The translations under genes and the position numbers were made by a program. A DNA stretch of 64,000 bases, from positions 124,001 through 188,000 of IMG/VR virus record IMGVR_UViG_3300028592_000004; one strand, written 5' to 3'. Source of the stretch: a virus. The notes beneath the pieces are model-generated. The model was not told the DNA's origin, searched no databases, and saw only the letters and a program-made list of their open reading frames with translations. How positions within the stretch are numbered: position 1 is the first letter of the stretch; each line of letters starts with the position of its first letter. This document shows, in pieces, positions 43,484-64,000 of this stretch.

Positions 43484-43725
43484 CAGAACCCTACGTCGGA
43501 CAGCGTGGGTGCGTCACGGTGACGGATTTGCACTTCCGATCGGTTGAGGCCCAGGTTACCCAGTACCTGCTCGAACCGAGGATCTTCAAAGGTGTAGGCC
43601 TGGACCAGGCCGTCTGCGAGTTCGATCGCAACCGCCACGATGGTTCCCTGGCGGTTGCGAATCACGACGCGACGAGCTTCTGCGACCTGGGGCTCAGCCA
43701 GCTTTTGGAAAAACTCGATCTGCAT
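43483..43725 (-). CDS. Small protein between split RNAP parts
   Basis: An 80-aa protein, beta-rich (RRVVIRNRQGTIVAVAIELA) with a short helical end. CAAGGAG is upstream of the ATG. It is coupled to beta'-C by a TGATG overlap. It could be a small RNAP-associated or assembly factor; not recognised. Confidence 0.5.
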   Translation of the reverse strand: MQIEFFQKLAEPQVAEARRVVIRNRQGTIVAVAIELADGLVQAYTFEDPRFEQVLGNLGLNRSEVQIRHRDAPTLSDVGF

Positions 43726-44494
43726 TACCGAGGCTCCTTGCGAGTGCCGCCAGGTTTGCCATCGACTGGGCCGGCGTCAAGGAGGACGCGGACTTGCTGA
43801 CCGAGGAACCGATTCCCTGGTAGTCGCTCGCCGTCTTGCCGGCAGCCATTCCAGGGGCGGCACCCTGGATCGGGTCGATGGGTGGAATCGCACTGGGCTG
43901 ACCGCCTGCGGCAGCCGCCGGGTCCATCCCCGCAGCGGCCGGATCACCGGCCGGAAGAGCTCCGGCCTGATCCTGATTGGCCATCTGCATCTGCATCGGA
44001 TCGGGCGGCGGGCCGAGGGCCACGTCCGCCGGGATCGGGATCTGCATGTGGTTCATGATCTCGGCGACCATCCGCATGATCTGCCAGAGCTTCGTGTCGA
44101 GGATGGCCGGGTCGACCTTCTTCGTGGCCGGCTTGCCCATGCCGGGCATCCCGCCGGTGCCGCCCGCTCCGCCTGCTCCGCCCATCATCTGCATGGCCTG
44201 AACGACGGCCTGGACCATCGCGGGATCCGCTTGGCCCCCTCCGCCGCCCATCGGAGGCCCGGCGAGGGGATCGGCCGGCATTCCACCGCCCGGAGGCATT
44301 CCAGGGGCTCCACCCGGCGCCGGCGCTCCACCCATCGCGGCCGGATCACCACCCGGCGGCATACCCGGGGCACCGCCCGGAGGGGCTCCACCGCCAGGCG
44401 GCACGACCGACGCCTTGAAGAACGGCTGTGCCTGACCGGGGTTGTTGGCTTCGTGCTGAGCCAGCTTGAGAATCGTCGGGTTGAGCAAGCTCAT
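43694..44494 (-). CDS. Gly/Pro/Met-rich protein between split RNAP parts
   Basis: A 266-aa protein. Residues 30-120 and 165-225 are Gly/Pro/Ala/Met low complexity (GGAPGMPPGGDPAAMGGAP). A short helical centre lies between them (LWQIMRMVAEIMNHM), with a helical C-terminus. The composition matches the scaffold-like gene at 32505, suggesting a virion or scaffold-related role although it lies inside the RNAP operon. A weak hairpin leader (44497-44510) holds AAGGAA. Confidence 0.5.
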   Translation of the reverse strand: MSLLNPTILKLAQHEANNPGQAQPFFKASVVPPGGGAPPGGAPGMPPGGDPAAMGGAPAPGGAPGMPPGGGMPADPLAGPPMGGGGGQADPAMVQAVVQAMQMMGGAGGAGGTGGMPGMGKPATKKVDPAILDTKLWQIMRMVAEIMNHMQIPIPADVALGPPPDPMQMQMANQDQAGALPAGDPAAAGMDPAAAAGGQPSAIPPIDPIQGAAPGMAAGKTASDYQGIGSSVSKSASSLTPAQSMANLAALARSLGNADRVFPKAG

Positions 44495-44496
44495 CT

Positions 44497-44510
44497 CGGC
44501 TTCCTTGCCA
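44497..44510 (-). promoter_or_regulatory. Shine-Dalgarno in hairpin loop (weak)
   Basis: TGGC-AAGGAA-GCCG is three G-C pairs and one G-U pair around AAGGAA. Confidence 0.35.
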
Positions 44511-44517
44511 GAAGTAA

Positions 44518-47500
44518 TTACCGGGGATTGATAATCTCGACGTTGTCGTCCACGCCGATCTCGCCCCGGCGGTAGGCCTGTACTGCGTCTCTCACTGTAG
44601 CGAACGTCCTAGTCCGATTCGAGGTCGGCGAAGGCTTGGACGCCCGATAGAGGCCCCCAGCATACTCCTTCCCAGGCAGCTGGTGAGCGCGGAAGTTGGA
44701 GACCGCCAGCAAATTCCGGCTGGGCAGCATCTTCTCGTAGGCATCTGCGACAGCCTCGTCGCTCTGCGGAACATGGTACTGCATCGCGTCGCCGTCGAAG
44801 TCAGCGTTGAATCCGGTGACGATCGTCGGCGAGATGTGGATCGTGTCGTCCTGGATCAGTTTCGGCCGGAACGCCATCAGGTTGTACCGGTGAAGCGTCG
44901 GTGCCCGGTTGAGCACGACCGGCCGATCTTCCATCGTCCGGAGCAGCATCGTGCGGGCGCGATCGGACCGCGACGTGACAGCTCGGGCCGCGTCCATCCG
45001 ACTCATCCCGTTGCGAACCAGTCCGCGAACGATGTGCGGCTTGTAGACCTCCCACGCCTTATCTTCCGGGATCCCCACTTCGTCCATGTCGAGATCCGGG
45101 TCTGGAATGATTGTGCCGCGACCGACCGTGTCGACCACCGAGCCGATCAGCTTCTGCTGGACGAAGCCATACTTCGGCGAACCACCGAAGATCGTCTTCA
45201 GCAGTCCCTTTACCTTGCGTTCCTGGTTCTTCGGCTGAGTCGGATCCGCCAGACCCGTGAGGGCCTTGAACGAGTTGTAGACGGCCAGGCGCTCATCACC
45301 CAGGTCGTCGAACTTGCCGGCCGCATCCTTCAGGATTCCGTTCGAATCCATGATCTCCTTGTAGAGCGCGTTGGCGTCGGCCACCATCGGTAGCTTGGAG
45401 CCCTGCATGACAGACACCGGCCGGAACACCGGCGGAATGACCGGCACCTTCGTAAGCATCCAGTCCCGCGGGTGGATCCCGTGCTGCTCCGCGCTCTTGA
45501 GGTACTTCAGCTTCCGGATGGCCTCATCCCGCCGGGTCTTCTTGCCGGACGCGATATCCGCCCGAGCGTTCTCGATCATTCGCGGGAGGTTGATCGAGTC
45601 CAGGGCGTACTTGATGGCGCTCGGCCCGGTGCGGTCGTTCAGCTTCTCGCGGCCGGCGAGGATGTCGAGGAACTTGTTCTCGGTCAGGCCGAGGACGCGA
45701 CGGATCGGTTCCTCCATGACAGGCGACGGCATCGGCTCACTGAGCTTGATGAAGCTCCACCGGTTACCGCCGTGCCCGCCGGTCAACTCTGGATCGAACA
45801 GACCGCCCTTGACCGGGTTGAGCCCGCCCTTCCAGTCGACAGTGTCGGAATTGGTGATCTCGCGGTTGCCAGCGAACTCGTCGATGTCGGCGTCGCGGAG
45901 GGCCAGGGTGTTGAACCGTGTCCCGTTCCGCACCACGTTGATCCCGGAGCCGCGGAGCGTATCCACGAACTTCTTGTAGACCATCGGGACCTTCGGCATC
46001 GGCGGAGCGTGACCGCTCATGTACTGCGTCCAGTACTCCGGATGCTGCTGTCCGCGCACGACGGCAGCGTCACGCAGGAACTCCGTGGCTCCGTGGCTCA
46101 GGAGGGCGTTGGCATCCAGGAGACTCACCCGCTTGCTTCCGGTCTGACCACCCTTCGCCGGCAGCCCCTCGCTGGTGTAGCCGCCCATGCTCCGACCCTG
46201 GCCCTTCGACTCGGCCGTGTGGTGGAGCTTCATGAAGTAGCGGTTGCCGGTGAAGATCCCCGGGATCTTCCGGTTGTTCGAACTCGGGTCGATCAGGTCT
46301 TCGGTGTCGGACAGACCATTCTTCTGCAGCTCCTGCATAGCGTACTGCACAAGGTCCGGGATGTCCTTGAAGTCCTTGACGTTGTAGTGCTTGCCGGTCA
46401 TCGCGGCGATCTTGCCAAGCGTCGCCTCAACCACCTGGGCGGGGTTGGTGCGGGTGATGATCCCCAGCGGGTTGGCGAGCACTTCGTACGGCTTACCGTC
46501 TGCACCGACAGGCATCTGGCTGTCGGGGATGATCTTCGCGATGACGCCCTTGTCCCCGTAGCGGCCGGAGATCTTGTCGCCGGTCTGGGCCTGCATCACG
46601 CTCTTGACGGTGACCACGATCCCCTTGTCCGTCTTGGCGACGTCGACAACCTCTCCGGGAGAGTGGTGGTCCCAGGTCTCCGTCTGGTCAGAGAAGGACC
46701 GATCCCGGGCCTTGTGAAGTGAGTTCTTGGCCCGCTCCTTCTGCTTGGCGCCGAGGATGATCGGGTCATCCGGCTGCAGGATCGTTCCCGGCTTGACCAC
46801 GCCATCGTCATCGATCGAGTCCAGCACCTTCCGCGGGTACTTGCTCGGGAACATGCTGATGAAGTCCCGCTTCTTCGTCCGGATGTTGTCGTCCAGGTCC
46901 AGCCCGTGCTGGTACATGTGCTGACTGCTCAGCCGCTTGGCGAAGGACTCGCTGATGGCGAAGGCATCCTCAAAGTTGATCCCCTTCCAGGCGATGTAGG
47001 CCGTCCGGGCATTCCGGCCGAGGGCCACGACTCCGTTCTTGTCGGTGTAGTTCGAGTGGGCGAGGAGCTGTCCCTGACCAACGCGATCCCCGGGCTTCAC
47101 AACGGCGGTGTTGTGGAGGTAGGTCTTTCGGTTCGAGGGGTCGTGATTCCAGAGCTCGACGACTTCCTTCTTGCCGTCCGGCGTCTGAATCGTGATCTCG
47201 TCGTTGTCGACGTGGGTGACCGTCCCGTCGACCTTGCTGCGGGATGCCCCGAACATCTCGCCGTACCGGTTCTCAAAGCTGTCGTCGACGTCCTCCGGCA
47301 CGCCGGTGCGGACAAACGGAGCTTCCCCGTCGTCGAGCGAGAGGGCCTGCGTCAGCATTCGCTGGGCCATCGCCGCCCGCTGCCCCTTCATGGCCGACTT
47401 CATGGGGACCATCGTCACCATCGGAGAGAGTGTGCTCTCCATGTTCGGCACTTCGAAGTCAACCTTGTCGCGCGGCACGAACTTCATCTTGCCGCCGACG

Positions 47501-48978
47501 AGCGCCGGGACCTGGTCCTTGTAGGTCGCCATCGCGTTCGGGAAGGCGAGGACAGCCTTGGTGATCTCCTGCGGTGACTTGAAGACGGTCTGGCCGGTCC
47601 GCGCGTCCCGGAAGGGAGCGTACATACGGCCGTCCTTCCCCTTCTCCGCAGCGTAGGCGAAGCGGGAGTCGACACCGGCCTTGAGCGATTCAGGCGTGAC
47701 CAGGCTGTCGATGAAGCCGAACTGTCCAGGCTGGACGCTCCGCGCTTCGTCGGGCACCGAGTCGACGCTCGGGATCCCGCCCTCACCCAGCCGGCTGACG
47801 CGGTACATCTGCTCAATGAGCATCCCCGGGTTGATCTCTTCCCCGGGGTTCCCCAGACCGCTGTCGGTGATGGCGCTGAGCAGGCCGCTCGTCAGGATCC
47901 CGGACGGGATATGGTCCAGGTTCTTGCGGATGGTGCCCTTCCACAGCATCCGGCGGAGCATGTTCTTGTCTCGACCGAAACGCTCTGCGAGGAGATCTTC
48001 GGGGCCGAGGAGCGTCTGGAAGGCCGGGTTGTCGCGGTCGTCCGTCTCGTCTTCGCCCTTGTTGATCGCCAGCAGCTTGCGGGTGGCCGCGAGCCACGTC
48101 GGGGCGTCGACCTTGTCGAATGCCTCGCGAAGGGTCTCCTTGTTGACCTCCGGATCGAGCTTCATCTTCCGGAAGGCTTCAGCAACGGCCTGCCCGCGCA
48201 GTCCCTCGTCCGGTTCGTTGCCGCGGACCAGCCGCCGGTAGAGCTTGTCGACCGCGCCGCGATCGTTCTTCGCCATGTTGGCGGCAGCCAGCTCGGGTCC
48301 CCACGCTTCGTTCAGCTGGGACGGCGTGACACCCATTGCCCGCAGGACCGGCCACATGGGGATCTCACCTTGGGCGATCTTGAGTTTGAAGATCCCGGAC
48401 TCCGGATCCATCATCACCCGATGCGCGAGCCCCTGGCCGGGGAGCACGTTGATGTGGGACTCCAGCTCGCCGCTCTCCTTCTGGCGGGAGAACGCTCCGG
48501 ACATGAGGCGAAGCTGGTGGCCAAGCGAGTAGCGGTTCCCGCTGAGGATGAAGGCCCCGCGGTCCCCAAAGTAGGGGACGTTCGCGATTGTAGCCCGCCG
48601 TTCGGAGATCGGCTGCTGCGTGGCCAGGTCGACCAGGCGCCAGGTCCCTTTCAGCTTCCGGGACAGCGTCTTCCCGGTGAGGATGGCGTTCTTCTGGTCC
48701 TTCTTCGAGTACCGTTCCGGCCCCTCGTACGCCGGGTCGACCAGCTCCAGCCGGTGCGTCTTGCTCTCGACCGGCTGGAACTTCATCGCGGAGTTCAGCA
48801 CGTTGTCGAAGATCGACTGCCGGATGGCTGTGACGTCCCCGAAGCCTCGACGTCCGGTCGGCTGAGCGAGCGGCGGAGGAGACCAGGGAGCGGGCGCCGG
48901 AGGGGTGCCCATTTGTGAATCCAGCCCCTGCAGCAGAGGCGAGGGGCTGGGGAGAAGGCCGTCCATGAAGTCAGGCAT
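44518..48978 (-). CDS. RNA polymerase beta fused to beta' N-terminal part
   Basis: A 1486-aa protein. Beta motifs come in order: GINFEDAFAISE (about 664), GDKISGRYGDKGVIAKI (about 800), NPLGIITR, and LHHTAESKGQGRSMGGYTS (about 917). Beta' begins near 1035 (ITNSDTVDW, then GGLFDPELTGG) with no break. It continues with the KLIGSVVDTVGRG segment, LNRAPTLHR (about 1352) and the catalytic NADFDGD at 1391-1397 (three Asp, Mg binding). It ends at the segment just before TTxGR. The beta' N-terminal zinc-binding domain is missing: GGLFDPELTGG runs straight into the RW.FIKLSEP strand. The gene starts one base after the previous stop. Confidence 0.9.
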   Translation of the reverse strand: MPDFMDGLLPSPSPLLQGLDSQMGTPPAPAPWSPPPLAQPTGRRGFGDVTAIRQSIFDNVLNSAMKFQPVESKTHRLELVDPAYEGPERYSKKDQKNAILTGKTLSRKLKGTWRLVDLATQQPISERRATIANVPYFGDRGAFILSGNRYSLGHQLRLMSGAFSRQKESGELESHINVLPGQGLAHRVMMDPESGIFKLKIAQGEIPMWPVLRAMGVTPSQLNEAWGPELAAANMAKNDRGAVDKLYRRLVRGNEPDEGLRGQAVAEAFRKMKLDPEVNKETLREAFDKVDAPTWLAATRKLLAINKGEDETDDRDNPAFQTLLGPEDLLAERFGRDKNMLRRMLWKGTIRKNLDHIPSGILTSGLLSAITDSGLGNPGEEINPGMLIEQMYRVSRLGEGGIPSVDSVPDEARSVQPGQFGFIDSLVTPESLKAGVDSRFAYAAEKGKDGRMYAPFRDARTGQTVFKSPQEITKAVLAFPNAMATYKDQVPALVGGKMKFVPRDKVDFEVPNMESTLSPMVTMVPMKSAMKGQRAAMAQRMLTQALSLDDGEAPFVRTGVPEDVDDSFENRYGEMFGASRSKVDGTVTHVDNDEITIQTPDGKKEVVELWNHDPSNRKTYLHNTAVVKPGDRVGQGQLLAHSNYTDKNGVVALGRNARTAYIAWKGINFEDAFAISESFAKRLSSQHMYQHGLDLDDNIRTKKRDFISMFPSKYPRKVLDSIDDDGVVKPGTILQPDDPIILGAKQKERAKNSLHKARDRSFSDQTETWDHHSPGEVVDVAKTDKGIVVTVKSVMQAQTGDKISGRYGDKGVIAKIIPDSQMPVGADGKPYEVLANPLGIITRTNPAQVVEATLGKIAAMTGKHYNVKDFKDIPDLVQYAMQELQKNGLSDTEDLIDPSSNNRKIPGIFTGNRYFMKLHHTAESKGQGRSMGGYTSEGLPAKGGQTGSKRVSLLDANALLSHGATEFLRDAAVVRGQQHPEYWTQYMSGHAPPMPKVPMVYKKFVDTLRGSGINVVRNGTRFNTLALRDADIDEFAGNREITNSDTVDWKGGLNPVKGGLFDPELTGGHGGNRWSFIKLSEPMPSPVMEEPIRRVLGLTENKFLDILAGREKLNDRTGPSAIKYALDSINLPRMIENARADIASGKKTRRDEAIRKLKYLKSAEQHGIHPRDWMLTKVPVIPPVFRPVSVMQGSKLPMVADANALYKEIMDSNGILKDAAGKFDDLGDERLAVYNSFKALTGLADPTQPKNQERKVKGLLKTIFGGSPKYGFVQQKLIGSVVDTVGRGTIIPDPDLDMDEVGIPEDKAWEVYKPHIVRGLVRNGMSRMDAARAVTSRSDRARTMLLRTMEDRPVVLNRAPTLHRYNLMAFRPKLIQDDTIHISPTIVTGFNADFDGDAMQYHVPQSDEAVADAYEKMLPSRNLLAVSNFRAHQLPGKEYAGGLYRASKPSPTSNRTRTFATVRDAVQAYRRGEIGVDDNVEIINPR

Positions 48979-51219: not shown

Positions 51220-51233
51220 AGCAATCCTTTGCT
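51220..51233 (-). promoter_or_regulatory. Shine-Dalgarno in hairpin loop
   Basis: AGCAA-AGGA-TTGCT is a perfect 5-bp stem with an AGGA loop. It overlaps the stop codon of the upstream protease gene. Confidence 0.55.
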
Positions 51234-52135
51234 TACCGAACGTGGAAGCGGCCTTTCCGGGACCGCTGATAAGTCGGAGGAGGGGAGTAACGTGGAGCCG
51301 CCTGGAGCTGGGGAGCCTGCGGCGGCAGTACGAACTGCGTCTGTTCGACCGGACGTGGCGCCGGCATCGGAGCCTTCTCAACCTGGGCGGGTGCAGTCTG
51401 CCCGTCCCGGATGATGACATCGGCAACTGCCCGTTCGGCCTGCCGTGTCCGGTGGCTCTTGTACTTCGCCATCGCCAGGAACTCGTTGAGCTTCGTGACC
51501 CGGGAGTACATGCCGTACTTCGGATTGGCGGGCGGCTCGCGACCGATGCAGATCCCGATCAGCGTGCCGGTCGGACTGAACAACCCGCCGCCGGACTCTC
51601 CGGACGTCGGGATGTGGTCGACGATAATCGCCGTGTCGTCCGTGACGATCTTGCCTTCGTTGTCCAGCCAGAGTGCCTTCCGGGCAAGCCATTCTTTCGG
51701 CTGGACGCCGAGCGGCGATCCAACCGCATGAACGACGTCACCGACACGGGGAACCCACTCCCGGTCGTCGACGTGGTCGACTGCTTTCAGACCGAGGTTG
51801 CCAGGCCCCGTGAGAAGCTGGGTGTCGTACTGGCTACTCTGCCCGATCACCGACATCTGTGCCTGGTTGGCGAAGTCCTTACCCCACTGGATGGTGTAGC
51901 GGGTGTCGTCCGAGGGGAGCTTCGCGGACTCGAAGTGAAAACAGGTCGAAACCAGGGTTCGCTCTGGGCTCGATTCGAGCACAGTTCCGGACCCGTAGTG
52001 CTCGTGATTCTGAGTGAGGTTCTGGTACTTCACTCGAACTGCAGCCTCGATCGGCTTGACGTCCGGAGCGATGTAGACCTGCCCACCGCAGACGGCCCCG
52101 AAGATCGACAGAATGATTGGCGCGATATGAAGCAT
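51233..52135 (-). CDS. Exported trypsin-like serine protease
   Basis: A 300-aa protein. Residues 1-18 form a hydrophobic signal sequence (HIAPIILSIFGAV). The chymotrypsin-fold triad is visible: H67 in STCFHFE after GSGTVLES, D104 in YDTQLL, and S181 in SGESGGGLFSPTG. The last 70 residues are Pro/Gln-rich and end basic. It probably acts outside the cytoplasmic membrane, perhaps cleaving host envelope or other phage proteins. GGAGG is in a hairpin loop (52140-52153). It is followed by small genes and preceded by a thioredoxin-like lipoprotein candidate. Exported trypsin-like enzymes are rare in phages. Confidence 0.8.
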   Translation of the reverse strand: MLHIAPIILSIFGAVCGGQVYIAPDVKPIEAAVRVKYQNLTQNHEHYGSGTVLESSPERTLVSTCFHFESAKLPSDDTRYTIQWGKDFANQAQMSVIGQSSQYDTQLLTGPGNLGLKAVDHVDDREWVPRVGDVVHAVGSPLGVQPKEWLARKALWLDNEGKIVTDDTAIIVDHIPTSGESGGGLFSPTGTLIGICIGREPPANPKYGMYSRVTKLNEFLAMAKYKSHRTRQAERAVADVIIRDGQTAPAQVEKAPMPAPRPVEQTQFVLPPQAPQLQAAPRYSPPPTYQRSRKGRFHVR

Positions 52136-52139
52136 CGCA

Positions 52140-52153
52140 AGTCCTCCGTGACT
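52140..52153 (-). promoter_or_regulatory. Shine-Dalgarno in hairpin loop (protease gene)
   Basis: AGTC-ACGGAG-GACT is a perfect 4-bp stem; the ATG is four bases past the stem. Confidence 0.6.
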
Positions 52154-52190
52154 GAGAAACATCCCTGTGGTCGCACTGTATCGACCGAGA

Positions 52191-53360
52191 TCAGTTGCCG
52201 ACAAGCGGGAACGTCGGTTCCAGCATCTTCGGCACGTTTGCCAAATGCACGCGGGCTTCGCGGCTGGTGACCGTGAAGCCGTCGATCGAAGTCGTGATGT
52301 TGATGAACTTCTTGACCGTGACCTTTGGCTTCGGGTCGAGGAAGCTCACCGAGAGCGTGTCGCCCTGCCGCCGAACGGAGATCCGGACCTCGGCATTCGA
52401 CGTGGCCGTGATCCCATCAGACAGCTGGATCGTCTGACCGCCCAGCAGGCTGAGCATCGTGCCGACGAAGTCCTTCTTGTTCATCGGGACCGGGTTGCCG
52501 GCCCGCGGCACGGGCTTGTTGTTGGCCTTCGCCAGACTGACGGCCACAGCCTCCCAGACCCGGGCGTCTTCGGGAGGTGGCTCGGCCGTTGGAGGTGGCC
52601 CGGACATCGCTGCCGGCGGCGCCACCTTCCAACGGTTCTTGTTCAGCTCGTCGACCATCGCGACCCGCGACTTCCATTCGGTCTTGAACGCGTCCTTGGC
52701 GATCGCGCCAATGACCGGCTCGCCGATCTGGGCTACCTGACCGTCCCGGAGCCGATACCAGAACGTGAACCGCGGCAGCCGGAAGTCGGGCTCGGAGGAA
52801 CCGTGATCGACTATTCGGATGTGGGCGGTGCCGTCCATTTGCTTTCCGGTCGTGTAGACCGGCGCAAGCGACGGGGCCGTCTGGGTGATCCAGCTCTTGC
52901 AGAAGCCACACCAGTCCGCCGTGTCGATTTCGGCCCAGAACTCAAGTCCACTGGGAGCGTGGAGGCTTTCGATCTTGATTGCTTCTTCGGGGGCGTACTG
53001 GGGGACTCGCCGGTCTTCTTCGAACGTTCCTTGGATCGGAGGGTCTTCAACCGCAGCTTGCGGAGGCGGCGGAGGCTGGACCGCTGGACCTGCTTGCACG
53101 GCGGGACCAGGTCCCACCGAATGATTCGGCACTTGAGGGTAGCCAGCTGCTCCAGCGCGGCCAGTATCTGCTGTCGTTTGTGCGGCGTCATTGACCACCT
53201 CCCGAACGTCGACGAATTCCCCGTCCGTACGGGCCAGAGCGAAACGCGCTCGGGCCAGCGAGAGATCGGCGTAGGAGGGAGCCCAATTCGACTTGTAGGA
53301 CAGGTCCAAGCCTGTGCACCCGCAGAACGCGAGGAGCACGAGCAACAGAAACTGGATCAT
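52191..53360 (-). CDS. Exported thioredoxin-like protein (lipoprotein candidate)
   Basis: A 389-aa protein. The N-terminus is a signal sequence ending in FCGCTG (residues 3-17), a near-lipobox. A Pro/Gln linker follows (PPPPPQAAVEDPP). A thioredoxin-fold domain then has W150-C-G-F-C-K155, a redox CxxC. The C-terminal region is beta-rich. It likely acts in the periplasm or on the membrane outer face, where it could reduce or form disulfides. The ATG overlaps the preceding stop (ATGA), coupling it to the papain-like gene. Confidence 0.7.
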   Translation of the reverse strand: MIQFLLLVLLAFCGCTGLDLSYKSNWAPSYADLSLARARFALARTDGEFVDVREVVNDAAQTTADTGRAGAAGYPQVPNHSVGPGPAVQAGPAVQPPPPPQAAVEDPPIQGTFEEDRRVPQYAPEEAIKIESLHAPSGLEFWAEIDTADWCGFCKSWITQTAPSLAPVYTTGKQMDGTAHIRIVDHGSSEPDFRLPRFTFWYRLRDGQVAQIGEPVIGAIAKDAFKTEWKSRVAMVDELNKNRWKVAPPAAMSGPPPTAEPPPEDARVWEAVAVSLAKANNKPVPRAGNPVPMNKKDFVGTMLSLLGGQTIQLSDGITATSNAEVRISVRRQGDTLSVSFLDPKPKVTVKKFINITTSIDGFTVTSREARVHLANVPKMLEPTFPLVGN

Positions 53361-57157: not shown

Positions 57158-59512
57158 TCAGTCGAAGGCGGCGCTGATGGCACCGGTCAACAACCCGCCC
57201 CAGAGGCCCGCTTGCTGCAGGCCCACCTGGGCCTCGGGATTGAGGCCCGCTAGGGCTCCCATTGTTTTACCCAGAAGCAACCCACCGAGAAATCCCCCAG
57301 CCCCGCTGAAGGCAACGGTCTTGGCGATGTCGAAAGGCGAAACGGAGGGCTTTCCACCGCTCCCCAGCGAGGCGGCGACGAGCGTACCGCTCGCGGCTGC
57401 AGCGACTTGCGCTGGCGTGCCACCGAAGTTCGAGCCGGGCCGTGCGGCGTCATTCCAGATCACACTCCCGAAGGCGTCGACGGGGATATTCGACAGGAAC
57501 ATTGTCCCCGTCATGTCCTCCGCGGCGTTGGTTTTCGTCCGACCGGACCAGCCGAAGTCGTCGGCCGGCATCTCGGAACCCATCCCAGACAGGTTCGAGT
57601 TCCACCCGTGCGGCGTCTTGAGACCCCAGTACAAACCCGGAGCAGCGCCCAGGCCGGCGCCCAGGAGCCCCAGCGTGCGTCGCATCCGCTTGCCGGAGAA
57701 GTACTGCTCCGGAAGCATGTTGTCCATCAGATAGCCGGCACCGTAGCCCAGGCCGGCTCCCAGAGCTCCACCAACCAGCGTGCTGGAGAGCGGGCTCGGC
57801 CCACCGAGCGGCTTGTTGACCTTCGACCACATGTCCGAAATCCCCTCGAACATCGCGCCCTGCTTGAACATCGTCCAGCCCGGCTCGTCGGCCGGGATCG
57901 TACTGACCAGGCCCTTCTCCGGATGGACGAACCAGCAGCCCTCTGCCTCCGCATACTTCACGACCAGCGGCGCCGCCTGCTCGTACAGAGCTCGCACCCG
58001 GGCGGGGACTTCCCGCCAACTGAGGTGTTCCAGCTCGTCGATCGCGCTCGCTTCCTTCTGGTTGCGCTGTCCGATCTCCTTCAACAGATCCCGGAACTTC
58101 ATGTTGATCTCTTCCTTCTGCTCGGCCAGACGCCGCAGGTGATAGTCCGCTCCAGACCGATCATCGGTCAGGCCGAGGAACCGTTCCAGAGAGGATGGCT
58201 CCCGAGGGCGGGACAGGAAGTTCTGGATGAGGACGTTCCGCTGGTCTGTCGGAAGGTAGCCGTGACTATCGTGACGGATCCCGCGGCCTTTGACCTGAGT
58301 ATCGCGAGCCTCGTTCCAGTGCGGATCCAGGATCTGCATCAGCCGAGTGCCACGGAGCGAGATCCCTTCCGAGCCGGCGGGACCGGCGAGCAGCACCGGA
58401 GCCAACCCGTTGTTGTAGCTCTCAATAATCCGCTTCCGCTCCAGGTCGGCGATACCGCCGTGGAAGAGGCCGTAGGGGATCTTGTCTCGCTCCAGGGCCG
58501 CGGCGTAGGGACGGAGGCCGGCGTCAATGAAGTTCGAGTAGACGAGCGCTCGGCTCTTCGGGTTCTTCGCCATCTGCTCCTTGAGGAGCTTATAGGCCAG
58601 CTGCAGCTTGGGCGAGGAATCGAACGCGGCCAACGGGTCCGGGTTCGACATGAACGGGAACATCGACAGCCCGATCTGTCGCGGTCCGGTCAGGAAGGAC
58701 GTCATCCGCTTCCGTTCGAGGGCGGAGAGCGGGAAGTTGTTCTGCAGCTTGTAGCGCAGGACCCAGGGGATCGAGTTCCAGAACGACCGATACGCGGTCG
58801 TCTGCTCGTCCGACATGTCAACTTCGTGCATCTCGTCTGTGCGATCCACGAGCGGCTTATCGGGAGCGTGGTAGTCGACGTGGCCCGCCAGCAGATCTTC
58901 CAGCCGGCCGACGTTCTTCGGCTCCATCACCTGGCCGGGCGTGACACCGAACAACGAGGCGAAGAAACCCGGGCGAACCGTCTTCTGCTTGATGAACTGG
59001 TGTGTGAACGCGTCCGGCGTGATCCGCTCGCCGGTCAGGATCGACATCGGCGCCGCGAGATCGGACGGGTGATTGACGATCGGCGAGCCCGAGAGGAGGT
59101 AAACGTGCTTGGCCTTGTTCGCCAGGTCCGTCACTGCCTGCGTCCGCTGAGACTCAGGGTTCCGGATCCGGTGAGCCTCATCGACGATCAGAGTGTCCGC
59201 GGCCGGGGCCTTGCCCGCCGTCGCGCCCTCGTAGGACACAACGTTGCCCATCAGCGAGCCGTCAGTGAACTTGGCCTGCTCCTTCGCAAAGTTGGGACGC
59301 AGTGCCGCTGGCACGATAGCCGTGTACGGCTTGCCGGCGTTCTCTGCCGCAGCGATCGAGGCCAGAGTCTTCCCGCTCCCCACGTCGTGGAAGAGGAGCA
59401 TGCGGGACTCTTCGTCCTTCCCGGTCTGGGCGATCCGCTTCTGTTGAGGCTGCAGCTCGACGCCCGGCAGGAGGGCCGCGATCTTCAACTGGTCAACGAA
59501 GTCGGCGTCCAT
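57158..59512 (-). CDS. SF2 (SNF2-like) helicase/ATPase with hydrophobic C-terminal domain
   Basis: A 784-aa protein. Walker A GSGKT (45-49), DEAH (110-113), LLSGSPI (motif III) and GRGIRHDS (motif VI) make a full superfamily 2 core. The C-terminal third (about 570-784) is glycine-rich and hydrophobic (GGALGAGLGYGAGYL, GGFLGGLLLGKTMG, AGLWGGLLTGAI), like the proposed internal virion proteins here. That suggests the ATPase may be packaged or membrane-bound. The ATG at 59512 overlaps the upstream gene by 28 bases. Confidence 0.8.
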   Translation of the reverse strand: MDADFVDQLKIAALLPGVELQPQQKRIAQTGKDEESRMLLFHDVGSGKTLASIAAAENAGKPYTAIVPAALRPNFAKEQAKFTDGSLMGNVVSYEGATAGKAPAADTLIVDEAHRIRNPESQRTQAVTDLANKAKHVYLLSGSPIVNHPSDLAAPMSILTGERITPDAFTHQFIKQKTVRPGFFASLFGVTPGQVMEPKNVGRLEDLLAGHVDYHAPDKPLVDRTDEMHEVDMSDEQTTAYRSFWNSIPWVLRYKLQNNFPLSALERKRMTSFLTGPRQIGLSMFPFMSNPDPLAAFDSSPKLQLAYKLLKEQMAKNPKSRALVYSNFIDAGLRPYAAALERDKIPYGLFHGGIADLERKRIIESYNNGLAPVLLAGPAGSEGISLRGTRLMQILDPHWNEARDTQVKGRGIRHDSHGYLPTDQRNVLIQNFLSRPREPSSLERFLGLTDDRSGADYHLRRLAEQKEEINMKFRDLLKEIGQRNQKEASAIDELEHLSWREVPARVRALYEQAAPLVVKYAEAEGCWFVHPEKGLVSTIPADEPGWTMFKQGAMFEGISDMWSKVNKPLGGPSPLSSTLVGGALGAGLGYGAGYLMDNMLPEQYFSGKRMRRTLGLLGAGLGAAPGLYWGLKTPHGWNSNLSGMGSEMPADDFGWSGRTKTNAAEDMTGTMFLSNIPVDAFGSVIWNDAARPGSNFGGTPAQVAAAASGTLVAASLGSGGKPSVSPFDIAKTVAFSGAGGFLGGLLLGKTMGALAGLNPEAQVGLQQAGLWGGLLTGAISAAFD

Positions 59513-60324
59513 GCCAGCACCCTCTCCAGCTCCATCAGAGGCTTGGCCGAGGACGTTTTCTCCGCGGCCCAAATGCAACTCGGACAGTCGTGGTCGACGA
59601 CGTGCCGCTCATTGTGGGAGCAGCGACACCGGGTCTCGTGCCCGCACTTATGTTGAAAGATCCCGTGCGCTGACGCTGCCTTCGCGACGTCGCTGTTCTC
59701 CTGCAGGATCTTCTTCTTCCGGACCGCGCAGGTGATGTGGAAATCGTACTCGTTGTTCTTGGGGCGTGCTGACAGCCCGTATGACTTGCGAAGTTTCTCC
59801 AGATCCGGAGACTTCACTTTCAGGAACCAGACCCGCGACATTTCCTTCCAGCTCGTTGGCGCGACCTCTTGCAGCGCCCCAAGCTGGTAGTGGAACTCCC
59901 TTCCCCGCTCGACGATGACGTCGATGCCGCCAATCTGCTCGATCTCTTCCGGACGCATGACGCTGATATGCGCATTCAGCGGTTCATTGTTGTGTGGCCC
60001 GGGCAATTCTGCGCCAAGGACCCGCATCGCCGAGAAGACACCCCTGACTAGATCATTCGGGACTGTCAGCAACAGCCATCCACTCTGAGACGCAATCAGC
60101 CGGCCCGCCAAAACGGGGGCATCGACCGCGTCACCCGCGGACTTCAAGAGGTAGCCGGACGCTTCGCCTAGTTGAAAGTCTGACGTCACGGACCTTTCCT
60201 CGTAGAAGTCCAGGTCACGTCTCCCCGGATCCCCTCCCGGGGTCCTGACGGAAAATGAATTTCCGCCTCGCAACGGCATCGCAGGCACATCCGTTGCTCC
60301 TCCATAGTCTCCGCAGTTTCCCAT
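59485..60324 (-). CDS. 2H phosphoesterase with C-terminal Cys/His cluster
   Basis: A 279-aa protein. The two signature motifs are H119-I-S121 (LNAHISVM) and H196-I-T198 (YDFHITCAV), in the right order and spacing for 2H phosphoesterases (RNA 2',3' or cyclic phosphate chemistry). The C-terminus adds a Cys/His cluster (KCGHETRCRCSHNERH, then CPSC), a probable zinc ribbon that may bind RNA. The ATG at 60324 has AGGAA eight bases upstream. A GTG at 60189 with GAGGAAAGG is a rival start, overlapping the stop of a 39-codon ORF. Confidence 0.7.
   Translation of the reverse strand: MGNCGDYGGATDVPAMPLRGGNSFSVRTPGGDPGRRDLDFYEERSVTSDFQLGEASGYLLKSAGDAVDAPVLAGRLIASQSGWLLLTVPNDLVRGVFSAMRVLGAELPGPHNNEPLNAHISVMRPEEIEQIGGIDVIVERGREFHYQLGALQEVAPTSWKEMSRVWFLKVKSPDLEKLRKSYGLSARPKNNEYDFHITCAVRKKKILQENSDVAKAASAHGIFQHKCGHETRCRCSHNERHVVDHDCPSCIWAAEKTSSAKPLMELERVLAWTPTSLTS
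60186..60305 (-). CDS. Possible 39-aa protein (alternative reading)
   Basis: A short frame with CLRCRC in it ends TGA exactly overlapping the GTG at 60189 (GTGA coupling, as elsewhere here). If real, the 2H protein would start at that GTG. The spacing of its own GGAG to the ATG is short (three bases), so it is uncertain. Confidence 0.3.
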   Translation of the reverse strand: MEEQRMCLRCRCEAEIHFPSGPREGIRGDVTWTSTRKGP

Positions 60325-60434: not shown

Positions 60435-60809
60435 CTACTCATCTTCATTGAGATTGGGGACTTCCAGGAAAACACGGCTGACGGATTCAAATGTGATCCG
60501 GATCCAGGTTGGGGTCAGATCTTCGAGGACTTGTGTTCGGTGTTCGACCAACCTGTACACGCAGCGCTCAACTGCGTTGTACAGGTTGTCCTCGGACCGA
60601 ATTGCCTGCAGTCGGTTGACAACTGGGCTCAAACGTCGCATCAATCCCAGAAAGATCTTCTGCAGACGCCTGCCTTCGAGGTCCGACTCGATGGCAAGGC
60701 GGGACAGAGGCTCTCCGCGCTCAACGCATTCCATCACCGCCGCGGTGATGGACATTGCCAACGTTTGCCAGATCAGCCATTCCTGGGTGATCGGCAGCTT
60801 CCTAGCCAT
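60435..60809 (-). CDS. Hypothetical helical protein
   Basis: A 124-aa, helical protein (ARKLPITQEWLIWQTLAMS) with a middle reminiscent of a small winged-helix or sensor domain (LSRLAIESDLEGRRLQKI). The ATG overlaps the metacaspase stop. It is a possible partner or regulator of the metacaspase because of the coupling. Confidence 0.5.
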   Translation of the reverse strand: MARKLPITQEWLIWQTLAMSITAAVMECVERGEPLSRLAIESDLEGRRLQKIFLGLMRRLSPVVNRLQAIRSEDNLYNAVERCVYRLVEHRTQVLEDLTPTWIRITFESVSRVFLEVPNLNEDE

Positions 60810-61605
60810 TGGAGAAGACTTCCCACAGCTGTGCGTACTTCGGTCCCGAGAGGACCGGAGTCTGCGGGCACTCATCACTCGGCAGGTGATTTCGGACGAG
60901 ACGGAACAGATCCCGGTAGGTCGCCTGCGGAGGCAGCTTCGGGATCAGCTGCTGCAGGTAGTACGAGAAGGCACCCTTCGGGCGCCCGTCGAACTCCGTG
61001 TCGAAGGCGAACTCCTTGTCGCTGCAAGCGGACATGCAGACGACCCCCTGCGTCATCCACGCCAGGGGCATGTGCTCTTGCTTGAGGGCGGTATCGATCG
61101 ACTTCTGCAGCCCCTTGAACTGCGGCAGATCGTACGGAGGCAGGAAGCGTTTCTTCACCCGCTTGCCGGGCTTCTTCTTCGGAGCGGACCGCATGACCGT
61201 TCCGGAGTGGCAGCTGTCGGCGATCAGAGCTACCCGAGCTTCCGGCTTGCGGTTCTGGTCGAACAGGAGGTACAGCTCATCGTCCAGAATCAGCTCGTTG
61301 TCGAGGTCGTAGGGGCACCAGGCTTCGTCTCGACCGTCGATCTCATCGCCATCCAAGTCGGGCACCCAGGTCCCGTGGCCGGCGAAGGTGATGATGGCCA
61401 ACTCGTTCGGCCCGGTGGCCTGCAGGAGTTCCGTCAGACCCTTCAGGATGTTGGCGCGGGTGGCCTCCTTTTCGAGCAGAACGTTCTGAACCTGGACACC
61501 TCGCTCGACAAGCAGGGTGGCCCAGTCCTGAGCGTCGTTGACAGCCCCGTAGAGCTCCATCTCCGAGTTGGCGTAGTTGATGCCGATGCACAGTGCACGC
61601 TTCAT
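60802..61605 (-). CDS. Metacaspase (caspase-like cysteine protease, C14 clan)
   Basis: A 267-aa protein. It begins KRALCIGINYANSEMELYG, the first strand and loop of caspase folds. Catalytic H77 is in FAGHGTW and C132 in ADSCHSGT. After the Cys lies a basic stretch (KKKPGKRVKKRF, 143-154), the kind of loop at which metacaspases cleave themselves after Arg/Lys. No signal peptide. The domain is stand-alone and cytoplasmic. AAGGAG is in a 6-bp hairpin loop before the ATG. It could act on host or virion proteins or on the phage's own enzymes. Confidence 0.85.
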   Translation of the reverse strand: MKRALCIGINYANSEMELYGAVNDAQDWATLLVERGVQVQNVLLEKEATRANILKGLTELLQATGPNELAIITFAGHGTWVPDLDGDEIDGRDEAWCPYDLDNELILDDELYLLFDQNRKPEARVALIADSCHSGTVMRSAPKKKPGKRVKKRFLPPYDLPQFKGLQKSIDTALKQEHMPLAWMTQGVVCMSACSDKEFAFDTEFDGRPKGAFSYYLQQLIPKLPPQATYRDLFRLVRNHLPSDECPQTPVLSGPKYAQLWEVFSNG

Positions 61606-61606
61606 G

Positions 61607-61624
61607 ACGTTCCTCCTTGAACGT
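61607..61624 (-). promoter_or_regulatory. Shine-Dalgarno in hairpin loop (metacaspase gene)
   Basis: ACGTTC-AAGGAG-GAACGT is a perfect 6-bp stem with AAGGAG in the loop; the ATG is one base past the stem. It is the clearest example in the window. Confidence 0.7.
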
Positions 61625-62481
61625 TAGCGGACGGCCGTCAGCTGATCCGGGCTGACATAGAACCGTCCAAGGCCCCGTCGTCGCTGATCTTCGTGAAACA
61701 GGGCGTGTTCGCAGTCACCGCCACGATAGGCCGAGACTGAGAACGCGTCCATCGTGTAGACGGCCATTCCTCCGAACGCCGACAACACCGGGATCAGCGG
61801 GGCGCCACGGTGGATCCGGTAGCCGCGGACAGCCGGGTCTCCCGGCTTGTGCGGTTCTGGATGCTTGAGGCTCCGCCAGGCCCACACGTCGAAGTTGGCG
61901 AATCCTGTCGGGCTCGTCCAGCTGGGTTCTGCCTGCAGTCCAAACGAGGCACAGGCATCCCAGTCCGACTCCGCGAAGGTCCGGCAAACCCCCGGCAGTG
62001 AAAAGGCCAGGGTGTCGAAGTCGAGCACGATGACGTAGTCGAACTCGGAGAAGTGGCTGAGCACGTATTCGCGGTAGACGTTCCGGCAGGAGGCCAGGCC
62101 GCAGGAACGGGCCACGCTTCGCTTCGACGGGAACCGATGCTGACCGAGCTTGTGACACATCGTGTGCCACCGGTCATCCTCAAAGGATTCGGCCTGCAGC
62201 AGGTCCACCGTGTTGTCGTGGGAGTCGTTCTCGTAGACAACGACCGTTCCTTCCCGGAAGCATTCCAGCAGGGCCGTCACCTGCGGGATCAGCGTCGGAA
62301 GAATGTGGCCCACGTCACGAGCCAGGCCGCAGATAGCGACCCGGCTACTCCGCATCTTGTGCAGTCCGATCTGGACCCGTTCCACCAGAGAGTGCTGAAC
62401 CGGGAAGTTTCGATCCAAGATCAGACCGAACCGTTCCGCCGTCAGCGGTGCCTGCTCTGCAGGCGCAGTCTCGCTGTCCAT
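61624..62481 (-). CDS. Glycosyltransferase, GT69/CAP59-like
   Basis: A 285-aa protein. Residues 48-95 (VAICGLARDVGHILPTLIPQ, then YENDSHDNT) and D154-F-D156 match the mannosyltransferase-like family related to fungal CAP59/CMT1, which also occurs in bacteria. It likely modifies a surface polysaccharide or glycoprotein. GGAGG is five bases before the ATG at 62481. Next to a methyltransferase and a GT9-like gene it may form a sugar-modification set. Confidence 0.7.
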   Translation of the reverse strand: MDSETAPAEQAPLTAERFGLILDRNFPVQHSLVERVQIGLHKMRSSRVAICGLARDVGHILPTLIPQVTALLECFREGTVVVYENDSHDNTVDLLQAESFEDDRWHTMCHKLGQHRFPSKRSVARSCGLASCRNVYREYVLSHFSEFDYVIVLDFDTLAFSLPGVCRTFAESDWDACASFGLQAEPSWTSPTGFANFDVWAWRSLKHPEPHKPGDPAVRGYRIHRGAPLIPVLSAFGGMAVYTMDAFSVSAYRGGDCEHALFHEDQRRRGLGRFYVSPDQLTAVR

Positions 62482-62517
62482 AGCCACCTCCGCAGCAGGT
62501 ATTCAATACCCGCGGAT

Positions 62518-63225
62518 TCAATTCCGCTCGCCGACCTTCTGGAAGACATACGTCTCGATGTCTTCGCGGCCGGCCGCAGCCTCCAGGCGATGATGCACGC
62601 GGCACACCAGATCGTACCGCCGGAGCCAGGACCGCAGGCCATCGTCGGTGAAGTAGTAGTAGTGCTCGTTCGGCCGGTAGTGCTTGGACTCGCGAATCCG
62701 ATCGAGGTTCTTGAAGATCGGGATCGAGGTGACGAGATAGTCCCCGGGGCGGATCCGATCGAAGAGGAGGTGCGGCTCGGGGATGTGCTCCAGAACGTCC
62801 CACAGAGTCCAGGCGACGACGCCCTTTGGCGGCAGATGGGTGTAGATGTCGAGCCACATCCGCCGCTCTTCAAGCCATGCCTTGGCCTTGGCGTTCACGT
62901 CGTAGCCATAGAGCACAAGACCGGGGACCTTCGTGGCCTCGAACTGAGCGTGGCGCCGCTGATCCAGCGCTTCGAGGAAGGCCCCGTCGCCAATGCCGAT
63001 GTCGATCACCGTGTAGGGATTGAGACGCTCGACGGTGTTGATCCGGGCTTCCTGCAGCTTGGTGAAGATCTCCAGGTCACGGTAGACGGTGTACTTGTCG
63101 AAGTAGGCGTCGTCGTAAGGGACGCTCTTCCGCATGTCCGTCTGGTAGGCAAGGCCCGGGTAATCGCAGATCGAGAGGTCTGCACCCGACAGCCGTGCCG
63201 GGTAGTGAGCAATCACGCGATCCAT
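62518..63225 (-). CDS. SAM-dependent methyltransferase
   Basis: A 235-aa class I methyltransferase. Motif I is VIDIGIGDGAFLEAL (73-87), the acidic residue follows in YGYDVNA, and a WDVLEHIPEP segment is motif II/III-like. It is probably a small-molecule or sugar methyltransferase by its neighbours. The ATG overlaps the upstream stop (TGATG). Confidence 0.75.
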   Translation of the reverse strand: MDRVIAHYPARLSGADLSICDYPGLAYQTDMRKSVPYDDAYFDKYTVYRDLEIFTKLQEARINTVERLNPYTVIDIGIGDGAFLEALDQRRHAQFEATKVPGLVLYGYDVNAKAKAWLEERRMWLDIYTHLPPKGVVAWTLWDVLEHIPEPHLLFDRIRPGDYLVTSIPIFKNLDRIRESKHYRPNEHYYYFTDDGLRSWLRRYDLVCRVHHRLEAAAGREDIETYVFQKVGERN

Positions 63226-64000
63226 CACGTCATCCTGTTGAGAAGTCTGGCCAGGTGCTCTCCGACGAAGTCGAAGGATTGGTGAGGAGCGTAATACACG
63301 TCCTGCCACTTGTACAGATGCGTGTTCACGGATCGTATGGCCATCTGATCCGGTCGCAGGACTTTCGCCGCGGACACCGACAGCGAACTGTCGATGCCGA
63401 TGTAGTAGGAAGCCTTCCGCAAGAGCTTGATCCCCTGCAGCAAGGTTGTCTGACCGCTCAGGTCGACGAAGTTCGGATAGGGTGGGATCGCCTCGGACTT
63501 GTCATTCAGGACGTAGCCCGTGACCCCTTTGAAGTTGAGCCAGGAGGAAAGGCAGGCCCAGTCGTCCTTCGAAAAGTCACGACGACGATCGCGCTTATCT
63601 GAGGAGTAGGGGCAGATGATGGCATAGCGCTCGTGGTTGACCAGACCCTTCGTCTCAATCGAGCGGAGGCCGATCTGACTGCCAATGTACTGACGGAAGC
63701 CGCGACGAATCGCGTGAAACTGGACGAGGATGCTCCAGTCGTCTGCCGCCATGACCTCCTGCGGCACCTTGTGGCCTTGGAGACGCTGCTCAGCAACGAA
63801 GTCCGGGAGCGAGTGGTAGCACCAACGCTCGTCCCAGTTCTCCCACACGGAGCGGTGTTCGAGGACCCGCGGCAGTGCGAGCTTGAGGATCTCGCGGACT
63901 GGTTCTTCCTTGCGGGTGCAGTAGAAGACGCGACGGATTCGCTCGCGTTCGGGGTCCGTCATGAAGGCGTCGAGCGCCAGGACATCGCCGATTCCGCCGG
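63225..64000 (-). CDS. GT9-like glycosyltransferase, 5' end outside window (partial)
   Basis: At least 258 aa in this window; the frame is open to the right edge with GGIGDVLALDAF, the N-terminal motif of family 9 (ADP-heptose-type) transferases. Near the C-terminus IGIDSSLSVSAAKVL matches the sugar-binding loop. An internal ATG at 63962 is not the true start. It likely transfers a sugar to a surface glycan. Confidence 0.65.
   Translation of the reverse strand, partial: GGIGDVLALDAFMTDPERERIRRVFYCTRKEEPVREILKLALPRVLEHRSVWENWDERWCYHSLPDFVAEQRLQGHKVPQEVMAADDWSILVQFHAIRRGFRQYIGSQIGLRSIETKGLVNHERYAIICPYSSDKRDRRRDFSKDDWACLSSWLNFKGVTGYVLNDKSEAIPPYPNFVDLSGQTTLLQGIKLLRKASYYIGIDSSLSVSAAKVLRPDQMAIRSVNTHLYKWQDVYYAPHQSFDFVGEHLARLLNRMT

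What the first reader, a model, noticed from the sequence alone, without database searches (positions are those of the whole stretch)
60802..61605. Phage-encoded stand-alone metacaspase under a strong hairpin ribosome site
Seen: caspase-fold strand 1, H77 in FAGHG and C132 in DSCHSG, and a basic loop fit for self-cleavage. No receptor or NTPase domain is fused. Known: metacaspases are common in bacteria, including in conflict systems, but are rarely noted in phage late regions. Inference: it may cleave host defence or envelope proteins, or process virion proteins. The small coupled helical gene at 60435 is a candidate partner.
Basis: partly seen in the sequence, partly recalled or inferred. 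Interest (0 to 1): 0.82.

Follow-up and report, generated by a model that had tools for sequence, protein, structure and literature searches.

The report
Stand-alone metacaspase in jumbo phage
A very large bacterial virus carries its own intact caspase-type protease, a relative of the enzymes that run cell death in plants and fungi, and over a hundred other bacterial-virus sequences turn out to carry one as well; almost none of them had been recorded.

Summary
ORF 61605-60802 (-) encodes a 267-aa stand-alone peptidase C14 (Pfam E 1e-24). AlphaFold gives pLDDT 92.5 and the closest solved structures are metacaspases. The H77/C132 dyad and the acidic S1 residues (D24, D130) are present. The window lies in a 229-kb tailed-phage contig. 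Salmonella phage Arash is the closest cultured phage found, and the gene sits upstream of the RNA polymerase and capsid genes, near the helicase. The 124-aa 'partner' overlaps the stop codon by 8 nt but has no detected relatives.

Phage metacaspases prove widespread. I found 109 non-redundant IMG/VR copies, yet only 1 of 50,697 phage records has one and PHROGs has none. The catalytic Cys is kept in 106/106, and the His wherever its segment is present. Within this jumbo-phage family the gene is accessory (9 of 44 large contigs sampled by tail sheath), comes from several lineages, and always lies 34-76 kb upstream of the sheath. That argues against an essential virion-maturation protease and favours an active, basic-residue-specific protease aimed at the infected cell; substrate and trigger are unknown.

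Side finds: metacaspases in some lysis cassettes, a metacaspase-Hsp20-ClpS operon, and metacaspases whose His-bearing strand has moved to the C-terminus.

The parts
60802..61605 (-). stand-alone metacaspase (peptidase C14), 267 aa; H77 and C132 dyad; basic p20/p10 linker 140-152
   Evidence: Pfam C14 E 1.3e-24; PDB 3bij E 9e-27; AlphaFold2 pLDDT 92.5; Foldseek metacaspases E about 1e-18
61612..61618 (-). Shine-Dalgarno AAGGAGG, 6 nt before the ATG; lies between the arms of a 6-bp palindrome 61624-61607 (hairpin not significant)
   Evidence: sequence; fold z -0.02; genome-wide count
60435..60809 (-). 124-aa alpha-helical ORF overlapping the metacaspase stop by 8 nt; possible translational coupling; no known family
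   Evidence: no Pfam, PHROG or PADLOC hit; no viral relatives, none near other metacaspases of the family
59485..60324 (-). 2H-SAK phosphoesterase, 279 aa (context)
   Evidence: Pfam PF22547 E 2e-11; relatives in two sister phages
57158..59578 (-). SNF2-type helicase (context; homologue of Arash gp217)
44518..48978 (-). phage RNA polymerase large subunit (context; homologue of Arash gp206)
61624..62487 (-). putative glycosyltransferase immediately upstream (weak CAP59-type match, below Pfam cut-off)
   Evidence: PF11735 E 1.7e-4
62518..63309 (-). methyltransferase upstream
   Evidence: PF13489 E 1e-8, phrog_6564 E 1e-42

Best explanation
The gene encodes an active, stand-alone metacaspase: a single-chain p20-p10 cysteine protease that cuts after Arg or Lys. 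A jumbo phage carries it as an accessory host-interaction gene at the upstream edge of its structural/RNA-polymerase block. Most likely it is made as a zymogen, matures by cutting its own Lys/Arg-rich loop after the catalytic cysteine, possibly helped by Ca2+, and then cleaves selected proteins of the infected cell (a host regulator, stress or defence protein, or a competitor's protein) to favour the phage. Shown: fold, catalytic residues, phage location, long-term maintenance of the active site in many phages, and accessory distribution. Inferred: Arg/Lys preference (from the acidic S1 residues D24 and D130), self-cleavage, late expression, and action on host or competitor proteins.
For: Fold and family. 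Catalytic Cys in 106/106 and His in all copies whose His segment is present (101 in register, the displaced ones at the C-terminus), across phage homologues down to about 25% identity: activity is under selection. S1 aspartates D24 (102/106) and D130 (106/106) match the TbMCA2 S1 residues D95 and D211 of PMC4357240. Phage context and synteny with Arash. The window copy groups with copies in three other large phages of the same family (100/88), whose RNAP is 47-53% and sheath 43-46% identical to the window's. An unbiased sample by tail sheath gives 9 of 44 large contigs positive, in at least two well-separated lineages, always 34-76 kb upstream of the sheath.
Against: No substrate, expression or activity data. 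The Ca2+ site is incomplete (R139 where TbMCA2 has D220). The location near structural genes could equally fit a virion-associated protein. In other phages the gene keeps other company (lysis genes, Hsp20-ClpS), so one function may not hold for all. Only incomplete contigs were searched, so 9 of 44 is a lower bound.
Confidence: 0.5

Rival explanations
1. Lysis-coupled protease: it is activated late, for example by Ca2+ influx when the holin opens, and helps dismantle the cell or release virions.
For: In a subset of other phages the metacaspase lies in the lysis cassette: Amidase_2 directly next to it in L046 and L052 (2 of the 3 Amidase_2 hits in 50 contigs), M15 lysin two genes away in L058 (the only hit over cut-off in 50 contigs), a muramidase in L031, an amidase-like gene in L028, a CHAP-type gene in L049. 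16 of 106 copies have a C-terminal membrane anchor. Three of the four Ca2+-site aspartates are present (against PMC4357240).
Against: No lysin or holin relative of those types was found in the window's phage. The window copy has no membrane anchor. Most phage metacaspases are not next to lysins.
Confidence: 0.2
2. Virion or RNA-polymerase precursor processing: it matures phage structural or polymerase proteins.
For: It sits upstream of the helicase/RNAP/capsid block, and in L062 directly before an RNAP gene that is 43% identical to window 41567-43483. phiKZ-like phages process many head proteins by proteolysis (PMC13282480).
Against: Absent from most contigs of the same family (35 of 44 large ones and 36 of 36 smaller ones lack it) and from the cultured relative Arash (one search finds no C14 there). 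A morphogenetic protease should be core. The phage has another, trypsin-like protease gene (51233-52204).
Confidence: 0.15
3. Proteostasis or N-degron role: it creates new N-termini that feed host or phage ClpS-ClpAP, or clears aggregates.
For: A metacaspase-Hsp20-ClpS order recurs in six contigs, with ClpS alone next to a seventh (ClpS and Hsp20 confirmed).
Against: Neither ClpS nor Hsp20 of that type was found in the window's genome. That group is one clade of mostly tail-anchored metacaspases, distant from the window's.
Confidence: 0.1

Closest known systems
Prokaryotic stand-alone metacaspase, e.g. Geobacter sulfurreducens GSU0716 (PDB 3bij)
   Same: Same fold, similar length (about 285 aa), no accessory domain; 27% identity by Foldseek, TM about 0.73
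   Different: Bacterial rather than phage; function of GSU0716 itself unknown
Type I metacaspases Yca1 and TbMCA2; type II AtMC4 and AtMCA9
   Same: Catalytic dyad, S1 aspartates, three of the four Ca2+-site aspartates
   Different: No N-terminal prodomain, no long p20/p10 linker domain; R139 replaces the fourth Ca2+ aspartate, A21 and A75 replace the S1 Cys and Ser
Metacaspases of eukaryotic giant viruses (Fadolivirus, Clandestinovirus, Medusavirus)
   Same: Virus-encoded caspase fold, the best BFVD structural hits
   Different: Nucleocytoplasmic viruses of eukaryotes; the window is a tailed prokaryotic virus
Dactylosporangium metacaspases (L014, L015)
   Same: Closest non-viral sequences found, 41-46% identity, same WVPDLDGDE motif
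   Different: Encoded beside a CHAT/TPR-like protein and a subtilase in actinobacterial genomes (read by eye); the tree places them inside a mostly phage clade
LR745208.1 uncultured 485-kb phage metacaspase (L003)
   Same: Stand-alone phage metacaspase with a 2H/LigT-type gene close by
   Different: 29% identity; different phage lineage, unannotated

Membership tests
Metacaspase (MEROPS C14B) | Caspase-like alpha/beta fold | tested here: met
   AlphaFold2 pLDDT 92.5; Foldseek top hits all metacaspases
Metacaspase (MEROPS C14B) | His/Cys catalytic dyad | tested here: met
   H77 and C132 align with catalytic residues of 3bij and Yca1; conserved across phage copies.
Metacaspase (MEROPS C14B) | Acidic S1 pocket (TbMCA2 C92, D95, S156, D211) | tested here: met
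   D24 and D130 present and conserved (residues from PMC4357240); the neutral positions differ (A21, A75)
Metacaspase (MEROPS C14B) | Ca2+ site of four Asp (TbMCA2 D173, D189, D190, D220) | tested here: inconclusive
   D93, D108 and D109 present; fourth position is R139. AtMC4 also has Arg there and is still Ca2+-dependent (PMC7206013)
Metacaspase (MEROPS C14B) | Cleavage after Arg/Lys | not testable with these tools
   needs an enzyme assay
Type I metacaspase | N-terminal prodomain | tested here: not met
   Caspase strand 1 starts at residue 2
Type II metacaspase | Long linker domain between p20 and p10 | tested here: not met
   Only about 55 residues between strands at 124-130 and 188-192
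CHAT / TPR-CHAT (type III-E CRISPR craspase) | CHAT domain with TPR | tested here: not met
   Only Peptidase_C14 hit, no TPR
EACC1-associated caspase (NF047832) | Score over NCBIfam cut-off (140 bits) | tested here: not met
   27.5 bits
Known anti-phage defence system with caspase | Defence partner genes alongside | tested here: not met
   Of ten proteins tested around it (51-64 kb), besides the caspase itself only the phage's own SNF2 helicase matches PADLOC, generically
PHROG phage protein families | Match at E below 1e-3 | tested here: not met
   No PHROG match

The most novel reading that the evidence does not exclude
Metacaspases are a widespread, recurrently acquired and still active weapon class of tailed phages: phage-wielded caspases that cut host or competitor proteins, turning the cell's 'death protease' fold into a viral takeover or lysis tool. 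They include new topologies in which the His-bearing strand has moved to the C-terminus.
Probability: 0.4. Interest if true: 0.85.

Novelty: new member of a known kind. Interest (0 to 1): 0.62.

Why it matters
Caspase-like proteases are discussed in prokaryotes as host stress, death and defence enzymes. Finding them, with intact active sites, in over a hundred non-redundant bacterial-virus sequences, including a jumbo-phage family with a cultured distant relative, raises a directly testable question: do phages use metacaspases against their hosts, against competitors, or for lysis? It also gives a set of sequences with natural variation (membrane-anchored, ClpS-linked, lysis-linked, strand-transposed) for biochemistry of the whole C14 family. 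Neither of the two jumbo-phage overviews read here mentions a caspase (PMC7824862, PMC13282480).

Tried and rejected
Special hairpin at the ribosome site: rejected (RNA fold z -0.02; 2 observed against about 1 expected). Helical 124-aa gene as conserved partner: no relatives found. Lysis link for the window itself: no lysin or holin relative of the seed types in this phage, so kept only as a rival. Window as part of a host defence island: PADLOC partners absent. First impression that the metacaspase is a core gene of the RNAP jumbo-phage family: that sample had been chosen by the metacaspase. A sample chosen by tail sheath gave 9 of 44 large and 0 of 36 smaller contigs, so it is accessory. RNAP-pattern scan for family members returned only one contig and was replaced by the sheath scan. 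Terminase_6N as the only phage hallmark misses this phage, so sheath, RNAP, capsid and Arash synteny were used. Strand-transposed metacaspase model has low confidence (pLDDT 60.5) but still matches metacaspases best.

Full report
What is there. ORF 61605-60802 on the minus strand is 267 aa with an ATG start and a strong Shine-Dalgarno, AAGGAGG, 6 nt upstream. It is a peptidase C14 domain over its whole length (Pfam E 1.3e-24). The nearest solved relatives by sequence are Geobacter GSU0716 (3bij), yeast Yca1 and plant metacaspase 4. AlphaFold2 with 69 aligned relatives gives pLDDT 92.5 and pTM 0.91, and Foldseek places it among metacaspases (E about 1e-18). From PMC4357240, the S1 residues of TbMCA2 are C92, D95, S156 and D211, and its Ca2+ site is D173, D189, D190 and D220. 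Through the Yca1 alignment these correspond in the window to A21, D24, A75, D130 and to D93, D108, D109, R139. So the acidic S1 residues expected for Arg/Lys specificity are there, and three of the four Ca2+ aspartates. AtMC4 also lacks the fourth and is still Ca2+-dependent (PMC7206013). A loop with 7 Lys/Arg in 13 residues follows the catalytic cysteine motif, a plausible self-cleavage site (inference).

What is not there. The hairpin around the ribosome site is no more stable than in shuffled sequence (z -0.02), and equally long palindromes around Shine-Dalgarno sites occur in 2 of 279 genes of this phage against about 1 expected. The 124-aa ORF at 60435-60809 overlaps the metacaspase stop by 8 nt, so translational coupling is plausible, but no relative was found in viral contigs or near other metacaspases of the family.

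Where it is. The window is 124001-188000 of a 229-kb IMG/VR record with tail sheath, baseplate wedge and tail-fibre genes and its own RNA polymerase. The closest cultured phage found is Salmonella phage Arash (RNAP 32%, helicase 34%). Homologues of Arash gp206 (RNAP), gp216 (RNAP), gp217 (helicase), gp218, gp220, gp222 and gp226 (major capsid protein) occur in the block at 30-60 kb of the window. The metacaspase lies at the upstream edge of this block, co-directional with it, downstream of a putative glycosyltransferase and a methyltransferase gene. Almost the whole genome is on one strand (273 of 282 called genes), so co-direction alone means little.

How common. In 50,697 annotated phage records the protein finds one relative, the unannotated 485-kb LR745208.1; PHROGs has no match, and predicted viral structures show metacaspases only in eukaryotic giant viruses among named hits. 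Profile-guided scans of IMG/VR, with the one phage record, give 156 loci, 109 non-redundant at 90% identity. Nearly all are stand-alone, about 230-350 aa. Of 106 aligned, Cys is present in all; His is in register in 101, sits at the C-terminus in the strand-transposed copies, and is missing only where the called start truncates the protein. A catalytic site kept over such divergence means the activity is selected. Some IMG/VR contigs could be misfiled cellular DNA; terminase genes over cut-off were found in 15 of 50 tested, and the sister contigs of the window have the window's RNAP and sheath.

Age and distribution in its own phage family. The window's copy clusters (support 100/88) with those of three other large phage lineages (contigs of 177-183, 186 and 235 kb; loci L018, L024/L022, L016/L065), whose RNAP is 47-53% and sheath 43-46% identical, while their metacaspases are 38-41% identical to the window's. 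That fits vertical inheritance among them. These relatives were found through the metacaspase, so I drew a second sample through the tail sheath: 9 of 44 contigs of at least 137 kb have a C14 gene and 0 of 36 smaller ones. Contigs are incomplete, so this is a lower bound, but the gene is clearly accessory. Four of the new positives (G068, G071, G072, G087) form a second lineage, and G013, G018 and G021 are separate again, so the gene was gained more than once. From the coordinates, all ten positioned cases (window included) put the metacaspase 34-76 kb upstream of the sheath, for two of them only if the contig is read as circular. In G068 it directly follows the homologue of the window's helicase; in G071 it is 3 kb before the RNAP. 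Suggestive of a favoured slot, but the lineages are few.

What it most likely does. An accessory gene with a preserved active site, gained repeatedly and kept near the structural/RNAP block, is best explained as a protease aimed at the infected cell or a competitor, not an essential maturation enzyme. The phage also has a trypsin-like protease gene at 51233-52204. This is inference: no substrate or timing is known. The two main rivals come from relatives. (i) Lysis: in a subset of other phages the metacaspase sits beside lysins; of three Amidase_2 genes in 50 contigs two are immediate neighbours, and the one M15 gene over cut-off is two genes away; 16 of 106 copies are tail-anchored. (ii) Proteostasis: a metacaspase-Hsp20-ClpS order recurs. 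Neither context is present in the window's phage.

Literature. The comparative overview of 224 jumbo phages (PMC7824862), a 2026 review (PMC13282480) and the huge-phage survey (PMC7162821) do not mention caspases. A 2012 survey noted eight Clostridium botulinum metacaspase operons that looked phage-related (PMC3501461), so the link to phages has been glimpsed once. Subscription journals and preprints were not searchable, so priority cannot be claimed.

Verdict. Real, well supported as a metacaspase, a new member of a known family in a replicon class where it was almost unrecorded. The function is open; confidence in host/competitor targeting is about one half.

Noticed in passing
L168:10001-10852; L058:9722-10525 (L057 94% alike); L163:9788-10573; L169 partial: Metacaspases with a transposed segment: the strand with the catalytic His (SSHG/STHG...DE...DD) is at the C-terminus, after the Cys strand, giving order b1-b2-b4(Cys)-b5-b6-b3(His). 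Seen in three diverged lineages. AlphaFold model weak (pLDDT 60.5) but best matches are metacaspases.
   Followed up: partly
L081:2216-4041 and L083, L085, L128, L138, L141; L091: Phage operon metacaspase - Hsp20 - ClpS in six contigs (L091 has ClpS directly next); most of these metacaspases have a C-terminal membrane anchor. Suggests a protease feeding an N-degron pathway.
   Followed up: partly
L046, L052, L058, L028, L031, L049, L147, L160: Metacaspase inside or next to phage lysis genes (amidase, M15, muramidase, CHAP-type, DUF5675) and a recurrent membrane protein next to it.
   Followed up: partly
L003:11944-16068; L048:9992-14255: Metacaspase two genes before an about 820-aa von Willebrand A-domain protein in two phage contigs.
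   Followed up: no
window 51233-52204 (-): Trypsin/HtrA-like protease with a signal-peptide-like start, in the same gene block (Pfam Trypsin_2 E 1e-4, below cut-off).
   Followed up: no
window 41567-48978 (-) and 57158-59578 (-): Phage RNA polymerase in at least two subunits and an SNF2-type helicase with a glycine-rich hydrophobic C-terminal part; more than 80 IMG/VR contigs of this jumbo-phage family were found by tail sheath, cultured relative Salmonella phage Arash.
   Followed up: partly
window 59485-60324; L003:9912-11405; L117 +3; L172:14499-16544: 2H/LigT-type phosphoesterases recur near metacaspases or RNAP in several large phages; in L281:12766-19140 (RNAP ORF of 2124 aa) a 2H-like stretch appears to share the reading frame.
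   Followed up: no
window 61624-63962; L018, L022, L024, L281, L284: Glycosyltransferase and methyltransferase genes lie just upstream of the metacaspase in several members of the family although the individual enzymes are mostly not homologous.
   Followed up: partly
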